DNA of 64,000 nucleotides, taken from NCBI RefSeq assembly GCF_000306945.1, contig NC_018518.1, positions 2,914,001 through 2,978,000 on the forward strand, written 5' to 3'. A model generated the notes under the pieces. The model saw only the letters and a program-made list of their open reading frames with translations. It ran no database searches and was not told the DNA's origin. This DNA comes from Bordetella pertussis 18323 (GTDB lineage Bacteria; Pseudomonadota; Gammaproteobacteria; Burkholderiales; Burkholderiaceae_B). Of this stretch, positions 11,307 to 13,103 are shown piece after piece (positions within the stretch are counted from its first letter, which is position 1; each line of letters starts with the position of its first letter). A program made the translations under genes and the position numbers.

Positions 11307-13103
11307 TCAGTCCTGGGCGCCCTTGCCCAGGCCCAGGTAGCTCTCGATGACGCGCGGATTGCCGGCCAGTTCGCGCGCCGGGCCGTGCAGCACGATTTCA
11401 CCGGTTTCCAGCACGTAGCCGTAATCGGCAACCTGCAAGGCGGCGCGGGCGTTCTGCTCGACCAGCAGGATCGCCACGCCGGTTTCGCGCAGCCGGGCGA
11501 TGATATGGAAAATCTCGCGCACGATGCGCGGCGCCAGCCCGAGGCTGGGCTCGTCGAGCATCAGCAGCACCGGATCGCACGCCAGCGCGCGGGCGATTTC
11601 CAGGATGCGTTGCTGGCCCAGCGCCAGGTTGCCCGCCTGCTCGTACAGATAGTCGCCCAGCCCGACGCGCTGCAGCTGCTGCGCGGCTTCGTGCAGCAGC
11701 TGGGCCTCGCGGGCGCGCTCGCTGTGCAAGGCGCCCGACAGCACGCCCACGTCCGAACGCATGTGCGCCCCCAGGGCCACGTTTTCCAGCACCAACATGG
11801 TCGGCAGCAGCTGCACGTGCTGGAAGGTGCGGCCCACGCCGCGCTTGGCGATCTCGCGCGCCGAGCGGCCGTCGATGCGATCGCCCAGGAAGCGCACCTG
11901 GCCGCGCGTGGCCGGCAGCACGCCGCTGATCAGGTTGAAGGTCGTGCTCTTGCCGGCGCCGTTGGGGCCGATCAGGCCCATGATTTCGCCGGCGCGCACC
12001 TTGAACGTAATGTCGTTGACCGCCACCAGGCCGCCGAACTCCTTGCGGATGCTGTCGACTTCCAGCACCAGCTCGCCGGCCTGCGGCCGGGCGCGGTGCG
12101 GCAGCGCCGGCGCTTGCGGCGGCGGCGCCATGTTGCGCCGCGAGCCGGCCGCGCCGGTGACGCGCTCCCACCAGCCCGACAGAATGGGCCACAGGCCATT
12201 GCTGGCGTACTGCAGCACCAGGATCATCAGCACGCCGAAGAAGATCAGTTCGAAGTTGGCGTTGGTATCGATCAGCTTGGGCAGGATGTTCTGCAGCTGG
12301 TCCTTGATTCCCAGGATGACCGCCGAGCCCAGCAGCGCCCCCCAGACATGGCCGGCGCCGCCGACCACGGCCATGAAGAGGTATTCGATGCCGTAGTTCA
12401 GGCCGAACGGACTGGGGCTGACCGCGCGCTGCATATGGGCATACAGCCAGCCCGACAGGCAGGCCAGCAGCGCCGCCCACACGAAGATGACGATTTTGTA
12501 GATGCCGGTATTGACCCCCATCGACTCGGCCATGCCGGCGCCGCTCTTCAGGGCGCGGATGGCGCGGCCCGGACGCGAATCGAGCAGGTTGCGCGTCGCC
12601 CACAGCGCCAGCAGCACGAACACCCAGATCAGGTAGTAAATATGGCGTCCGCTGGCCAGCGACCAGCCGAACAGGCTGATGGGCTCGATGCCGGCGATGC
12701 CGTCATGCTTGCCGAGCCAGTCCAGGTTGCCGAACAGGTAATACAGCGAGAGCCCCCAGGCGATGGTGCCCAGCGGCAGATAATGCCCCGACAGCCGCAG
12801 CGTGATCAGCCCCAGCAGGAACGCCACCACGGCCGTCACCAGCAGGCCCACCGGCAGCGCCAGCCACGGCGAGATGTCGTATTGCGTGGTGAGCAGTGCC
12901 GTGGTGTAGGCGCCCAGGCCCACGAAGGCCGCCTGGCCGAACGAGGTCAGGCCGCCCACGCCGGTCAGCAGCACCAGCCCCAGCGCCACCATGGCGGCCA
13001 GGCCGATGTAGTTGAGTTGCGTGATCCAGAATTCGGGCGTGGCCGACAGCAGCGGCAGGCCGGCCAGCACGACGATGAATGCGATAAGCAGGAAGCGGTT
13101 CAT
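11307..13103 (-). CDS. LivM permease-ATPase fusion with LivG/LivF hybrid ATPase domain
   Basis: This 598-residue fusion has a LivM-type permease in residues 1 to about 335 (GVGGLTSFGQAAFVGLGAYTT; about ten membrane segments), a Pro/Ala-rich linker, then one ATPase from about 345. The ATPase starts as LivG (GLIGPNGAGKSTTFNLISG, NLALGQQRILEIARAL). After Walker B (Asp517) it continues as LivF (SLGLAPRIVREIF, ILLVEQNARAAL, GYVLETGEIVLHGPA). The switch position is Gln, as in LivF, not His. No separate livF follows. This looks like an in-frame deletion fusing livG and livF at the shared LDEP motif. The start ATG lies 5 bp after the upstream permease stop. Confidence 0.85.
   Translation of the reverse strand: MNRFLLIAFIVVLAGLPLLSATPEFWITQLNYIGLAAMVALGLVLLTGVGGLTSFGQAAFVGLGAYTTALLTTQYDISPWLALPVGLLVTAVVAFLLGLITLRLSGHYLPLGTIAWGLSLYYLFGNLDWLGKHDGIAGIEPISLFGWSLASGRHIYYLIWVFVLLALWATRNLLDSRPGRAIRALKSGAGMAESMGVNTGIYKIVIFVWAALLACLSGWLYAHMQRAVSPSPFGLNYGIEYLFMAVVGGAGHVWGALLGSAVILGIKDQLQNILPKLIDTNANFELIFFGVLMILVLQYASNGLWPILSGWWERVTGAAGSRRNMAPPPQAPALPHRARPQAGELVLEVDSIRKEFGGLVAVNDITFKVRAGEIMGLIGPNGAGKSTTFNLISGVLPATRGQVRFLGDRIDGRSAREIAKRGVGRTFQHVQLLPTMLVLENVALGAHMRSDVGVLSGALHSERAREAQLLHEAAQQLQRVGLGDYLYEQAGNLALGQQRILEIARALACDPVLLMLDEPSLGLAPRIVREIFHIIARLRETGVAILLVEQNARAALQVADYGYVLETGEIVLHGPARELAGNPRVIESYLGLGKGAQD

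What the first reader, a model, noticed from the sequence alone, without database searches (positions are those of the whole stretch)
11307..13103. Hybrid LivG/LivF ATPase domain fused to LivM
The ATPase half starts with LivG-specific sequence but switches to LivF-specific sequence right after Walker B (Asp517, bases 11553-11555). The operon has no separate livF. An in-frame deletion between livG and livF at their shared LDEP motif would give this. The hybrid keeps Walker A, signature and Walker B, but has Gln at the switch position, so a homodimer would lack the switch His at both sites. The system may be dead, or may borrow the other operon's LivG/LivF.
Basis: partly seen in the sequence, partly recalled or inferred. 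Interest (0 to 1): 0.75.

Follow-up and report, generated by a model that had tools for sequence, protein, structure and literature searches.

The report
Two transporter motor genes fused by deletion
In this bacterium a deletion has fused two neighbouring genes for the two motor proteins of an amino-acid importer into one intact-looking gene that lacks both halves of the motor's predicted working site, so the importer is probably dead although it looks like a normal gene.

Summary
The finding is real. The 598-residue protein at 11307-13103 (-) is LivM plus LivG up to residue 514, then LivF. Residues 1-514 match Bordetella bronchiseptica LivMG at 513 positions; residues 515-585 match a Bordetella-type LivF at 71 of 71. 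Relatives keep LivMG plus a separate livF in 78 of 78 loci readable at both sites, so about 0.78 kb was lost. The join lies just before Walker B, not after Asp517. A second hybrid protein with two other residues argues against an assembly error.

LivG has a degenerate signature and His switch; LivF has an LSGG signature and Gln switch. The hybrid keeps LivG's degenerate signature and LivF's Gln. Neither a homodimer nor pairing with a typical LivG or LivF rebuilds a canonical ATP site. Most likely the transporter is dead: a pseudogene with an open frame that annotation would miss. This is ordinary genome reduction with an instructive lesion. No activity was measured, and the spread among isolates is unknown.

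The parts
11307..13103 (-). hybrid gene: LivM permease, linker and one chimeric LivG/LivF ATPase domain, 598 aa
11562..13103 (-). LivM-LivG derived part, residues 1-514
   Evidence: 513 of 514 identical to B. bronchiseptica LivMG P0003
11310..11561 (-). LivF derived part, residues 515-598
   Evidence: 71 of 71 identical to LivF P0134 over residues 515-585
11559..11567 (-). region of the join: codons 513-514 (CTGCTG, shared by both genes in 25 of 78 relatives) and LivF's ATG codon 515
11943..11969 (-). Walker A GPNGAGKST (LivG type), residues 379-387
11613..11627 (-). degenerate signature LALGQ (LivG type), residues 493-497
11547..11570 (-). Walker B, residues 512-519; Asp517 at 11553-11555
11454..11456 (-). 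Gln550 at the switch position (LivF type)
13109..14134 (-). LivH-type permease of the same operon, 341 aa, open; 4 residues shorter than in two relatives
14296..15459 (-). substrate-binding protein of the same operon (ORF listed to 15510; start set by alignment to a relative)

Best explanation
A deletion of about 0.78 kb between the tandem paralogues livG and livF, at equivalent codons, removed the last part of LivG (with its His switch) and the first two thirds of LivF (with its LSGG signature) and fused the rest in frame. [Shown by comparison with relatives.] LivFG normally has one canonical composite ATP site (LivG Walker motifs and His with LivF LSGGE) and one degenerate site (LivF Walker motifs and Gln with LivG LALGQ). 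[Shown as a motif pattern; which site works is inferred from TAP.] The hybrid keeps the degenerate signature and the Gln switch, so a homodimer has two degenerate sites and the importer binds ATP at best but does not drive transport. [Inferred.] The gene is a pseudogene with an open reading frame. [Inferred.]
For: Sharp identity switch at 514/515 and opposite tree placement of the two parts. LivMG plus LivF in 78 of 78 loci readable at both sites, of 80, and in 13 of 14 other Bordetella genomes, the 14th cut by a contig end (some are the same assemblies as). The hybrid fragment scores 275 bits in this genome; the best of the other 267 family genomes scores 178. LivG is degenerate signature plus His in 79 of 79 parsed, LivF is LSGGE plus Gln in 79 of 79 parsed. 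In 359 proteins, 226 domains are LSGG-type with Gln, 221 degenerate with His and 4 degenerate with Gln, namely P0001, P0002 and two off-by-one parses. In TAP, a Gln switch in TAP1 and a degenerate C-loop in TAP2, together with a Walker B change in TAP1, mark the site devoid of ATPase activity (PMC6222333, passages).
Against: The frame is open, only 1 of 514 residues differs from B. bronchiseptica LivMG, and the other operon genes are open; that may only mean the lesion is young. The ATPase domain is predicted to fold, with block pLDDT 80-91 through residues 471-590. No ATPase or transport measurement exists here. The degenerate TAP site also has a Walker B change that the hybrid lacks. Archaeal 1g6h, a LivG relative, aligns with LSGGQ and His, so the asymmetry is not universal.
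Confidence: 0.8

Rival explanations
1. The hybrid is not itself active, but LivH and LivM of this operon are served by a complete LivG-LivF pair from another operon, with the fused ATPase domain pushed aside.
For: The genome has several other LivG and LivF genes.
Against: The chimeric domain stays tethered to LivM and is predicted to keep the ATPase fold. Borrowing a single partner gives no canonical site, since the LivF proteins parsed have Gln and the LivG proteins parsed lack LSGG. The adjacent operon's LivF has Walker A Arg and Gln.
Confidence: 0.08
2. The hybrid is a working homodimeric ATPase: one domain now serves both positions, with slow hydrolysis despite Gln and LALGQ.
For: Walker A, Walker B and Glu518 are present. 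The frame is open and the gene hardly changed.
Against: Of 451 domains parsed in 359 proteins, only those of P0001 and P0002 truly carry this motif pair (2 proteins had no parsed domain). A similar pair marks the inactive site in TAP. The LivH and LivM docking sites are made for two different ATPases (inference).
Confidence: 0.08
3. Assembly or sequencing error collapsed livG and livF.
For: A collapse at paralogous sequence is conceivable.
Against: Another protein, P0002, has the same join and length with two different residues, although its source is not shown. In 78 relatives the longest exact stretch shared by livG and livF in the 63 nt around this site is 5-19 nt, median 9, too little to collapse an assembly (inference).
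Confidence: 0.02

Closest known systems
LivM-LivG fusion plus separate LivF, Bordetella and Achromobacter (B. bronchiseptica LivMG is P0003, 612 aa)
   Same: Same LivM, linker and LivG sequence up to residue 514 (P0003); substrate-binding protein, LivH, LivMG in the same order in L029
   Different: P0003 keeps the LivG C-terminus with His switch; the loci of relatives have a whole livF gene. The livF of B. bronchiseptica itself was not seen
TAP1/TAP2 asymmetric ABC transporter
   Same: One partner has a Gln switch, the other a degenerate C-loop with canonical H-loop
   Different: Exporter of another family, with a further Walker B change in TAP1. Native LivFG resembles TAP; the hybrid carries both degenerate features in one domain
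P0245, Betaproteobacteria MAG protein of 666 aa
   Same: Also an in-frame LivG to LivF join downstream of LivM
   Different: Joined after the LivG His switch and before the LivF LSGGE, so it keeps both; from a metagenome assembly and unverified
LivM-LivG-LivF triple fusions such as P0035 (875 aa)
   Same: LivG and LivF sequence in one chain
   Different: Both ATPase domains are there in full

Membership tests
LivG (branched-chain amino acid importer ATPase) | His at the switch and LivG C-terminal domain PF12399 | tested here: not met
   Gln550; PF12399 match 21.9 bits, under the 25.5 cut-off
LivG (branched-chain amino acid importer ATPase) | LivG-type N-terminal two thirds with degenerate signature | tested here: met
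   169 of 170 identical to P0003 over residues 345-514
LivG (branched-chain amino acid importer ATPase) | NCBIfam PRK11300 curated cut-off | tested here: inconclusive
   217.9 against 362 bits; the cut-off was not checked on a native LivG of this clade, and the neighbouring LivF also falls short of the LivF model (165.2 against 441)
LivF | LSGG signature | tested here: not met
   LALGQ at 493-497
LivF | Gln switch and LDEPSLGLAP | tested here: met
LivM permease | PF02653 over its cut-off | tested here: met
   139.8 bits against 26.8, residues 30-297
ABC ATPase with at least one canonical composite site | His switch in one subunit facing LSGG in the other | tested here: not met
   motif bookkeeping for the homodimer and for pairings with the LivG and LivF types parsed
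ABC ATPase with at least one canonical composite site | ATP hydrolysis | not testable with these tools
   needs purified protein

The most novel reading that the evidence does not exclude
The fusion is a working single-ATPase, homodimeric importer or an ATP-binding regulator that runs on two doubly degenerate sites (Gln switch plus LALGQ), a motif pair that among the domains parsed here only this hybrid and its near-identical copy carry.
Probability: 0.06. Interest if true: 0.7.

Novelty: new member of a known kind. Interest (0 to 1): 0.4.

Why it matters
It is a probable pseudogene that annotation would read as a working transporter (open frame, good Pfam hits), so a metabolic model of this genome should not count it unless it is tested. 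The comparison also shows a consistent TAP-like asymmetry between LivG and LivF in this clade, which predicts that only the LivG-Walker/LivF-signature site works. The natural chimera is the complementary loss: it keeps only the two degenerate halves.

Tried and rejected
Rejected: one uniform family (contradicted); a close livF copy elsewhere in the genome (paralogues at most 54% identical to a relative's LivF); a hybrid common to relatives; a widespread hybrid in protein databases (of the 120 best listed of 5556, only P0002 was parsed with the same motif pair; 2 of the 359 proteins held had no parsed domain). P0242 and P0243 outscored the hybrid, but their sequences hold both LivG and LivF stretches and are not the same hybrid.

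Paper searches listed nothing whose title or shown abstract describes this fusion or a LivF/LivG asymmetry; only open-access papers are held. Passages seen mention a livFGHK operon of B. bronchiseptica (PMC12973838), BP0619, a branched-chain amino acid ABC transporter ATP-binding protein of B. pertussis (PMC6531889), and branched-chain transporters among sulfate-induced genes (PMC3885589); I could not map any of them to this gene. The structure model is modest overall (mean pLDDT 62.5, 26 sequences, much of the LivM part under 50) and is used only for the ATPase domain.

Corrected on re-check: a CTGCTG at the join is shared by both genes in 25 of 78 relatives only, and not in L029 or L030, so the repeat used in the true parent is not known.

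Parsing faults: the first LivG and LivF patterns failed and were replaced. L083 missed the LivG pattern though one search shows its LivMG, and L078, cut by its stored end, had no LivF match; both are outside the 78. In one search two LivG rows (near 239476 and 1939053) show a false Gln from the lazy pattern; one search shows His for the first, and the true switch of the second was not printed. Several LivG-like matches were not parsed. Three apparent hybrids (P0311, P0317, P0335) are off-by-one readings of an LSGG or MSGG signature.

Full report
What is there. The gene at 11307-13103 on the minus strand encodes 598 residues. Pfam finds a LivM/LivH-type permease domain at 30-297 and one ABC ATPase at 362-520. 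It follows a substrate-binding protein and a LivH-type permease on the same strand. The next gene, whose listed ORF ends at 11260 on the other strand, is not a livF; it reads as a branched-chain aminotransferase (recalled from its sequence, no family search run).

The organism. The nearest named relative protein is from Bordetella bronchiseptica (P0003), and the genome is 4,043,846 bases in one contig. I recall this as the size of B. pertussis strain 18323; no call confirmed the name (the number was searched once, and the papers listed with it were unrelated).

The hybrid. Residues 1-514 differ from B. bronchiseptica LivMG at one position (Leu437 against Ser). By segment, LivG identity falls from 169 of 170 (345-514) to 20 of 71 (515-585), while LivF identity rises from 58 of 170 to 71 of 71. 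Trees with 40 LivG and 40 LivF sequences (of 115 and 119 available) place the two segments in opposite families; mean identity to LivG and LivF is 86.6% and 33.7% for the first, 33.5% and 95.4% for the second.

How it arose. Of 80 related loci, 78 could be read at both LivG and LivF sites, and all 78 have both. The LDEP codons of livG and livF lie 721-1016 nt apart, 782 in the Bordetella loci L029 and L030. In 13 of 14 other Bordetella genomes both are present; in the 14th the contig ends inside the gene. Several of those genomes are the same assemblies as loci, so the two counts overlap. The window reads CTGCTG and then ATG at codons 513-515. ATG is at the third codon in livF of 77 of 78 relatives and livG of 0 of 78, so residue 515 already comes from LivF. 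CTGCTG is shared by both genes in 25 of 78 relatives, not in L029 or L030; the longest exact stretch shared in the 63 nt compared is 5-19 nt, median 9. Joining at equivalent codons keeps the frame whatever the two genes' original frames, so the open frame needs no further explanation. A deletion at a short repeat is the simplest history; the DNA of the closest sister was not available to show the repeat.

Rarity. A 135-residue piece across the join scored 275 bits over its whole length in this genome and at most 178 in the other 267 family genomes (partial matches from fragment residue 8-32 on, 70-83% identical). 172 of 268 had no match at the cut-off used and 15 candidates per genome were scored, so a distant hybrid could be missed. 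In a protein database search with residues 470-590 (best 120 listed of 5556), only P0002 was parsed with the same motif pair. P0002 has the same join, with Ser108 and Gln340 where the window has Tyr and Pro; B. bronchiseptica agrees with the window at both. Its source is not shown. It argues against an assembly error.

What it means for the motor. In the loci, all 79 LivG parsed have a non-LSGG signature and His switch, and all 79 LivF parsed have LSGGE and Gln. Across 359 proteins held, 226 domains are LSGG-type with Gln, 221 are degenerate with His, and 4 are degenerate with Gln: P0001, P0002 and two off-by-one readings; 2 proteins had no parsed domain. Of 94 chains with two parsed domains, 92 show a degenerate-His domain followed by an LSGG-Gln domain; of the other two, one is an off-by-one reading and one was read as two LSGG-Gln domains. 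These sets were drawn by similarity to this clade and are not a random sample; archaeal 1g6h aligns with LSGGQ and His. In this genome's other operons the LivG genes parsed lack LSGG and the LivF genes parsed have Gln; not every paralogue was parsed. The neighbouring operon's LivF even has Arg for the Walker A Lys, also in its orthologues in 12 of 14 other Bordetella genomes (no match at the cut-off in the other two), which suggests that the LivF-side site need not hydrolyse ATP.

In TAP, a Gln switch in TAP1 and a degenerate C-loop in TAP2, with a Walker B change in TAP1, make a site devoid of ATPase activity (PMC6222333, passages seen). TAP hydrolyses only at the consensus site (PMC12422388, passages). 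By analogy the active LivFG site is LivG Walker motifs plus His facing LivF LSGGE. The deletion removed exactly that His and that LSGGE. Hybrid-hybrid, hybrid-LivF and hybrid-LivG dimers each lack a site with both features. This is bookkeeping from motifs, not a measurement.

Function. I conclude that the protein probably folds (block pLDDT 80-91 through residues 471-590) but cannot power import, and that this is a silent pseudogene. B. pertussis is described as having 358 pseudogenes from genome reduction (PMC5553986, passages), so the event fits if the organism is B. pertussis. Stop or frameshift criteria would not flag the gene.

Limits. The fraction of isolates with the hybrid, expression, ATPase activity and uptake were not determined.

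Noticed in passing
window 5359-6069 (+): LivF of the neighbouring operon has Walker A GRNGAGRTT (Arg for the usual Lys) and LDEI instead of LDEP; the same residues are in its orthologues in 12 of 14 other Bordetella genomes and in one paralogue.
   Followed up: partly
P0245, a 666-aa protein from a Betaproteobacteria MAG: A different in-frame LivG to LivF join, after the LivG His switch and before the LivF LSGGE; may be real or a metagenome artefact.
   Followed up: no
window 13109-14134 (-): LivH is 4 residues shorter than in B. genomosp. 12 and B. ansorpii, at residue 99/100 in a divergent stretch.
   Followed up: partly
protein P0005 (metagenome, 592 aa): A LivMG close to B. bronchiseptica's in its ATPase part, with about 20 residues missing in the linker between permease and ATPase.
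   Followed up: no
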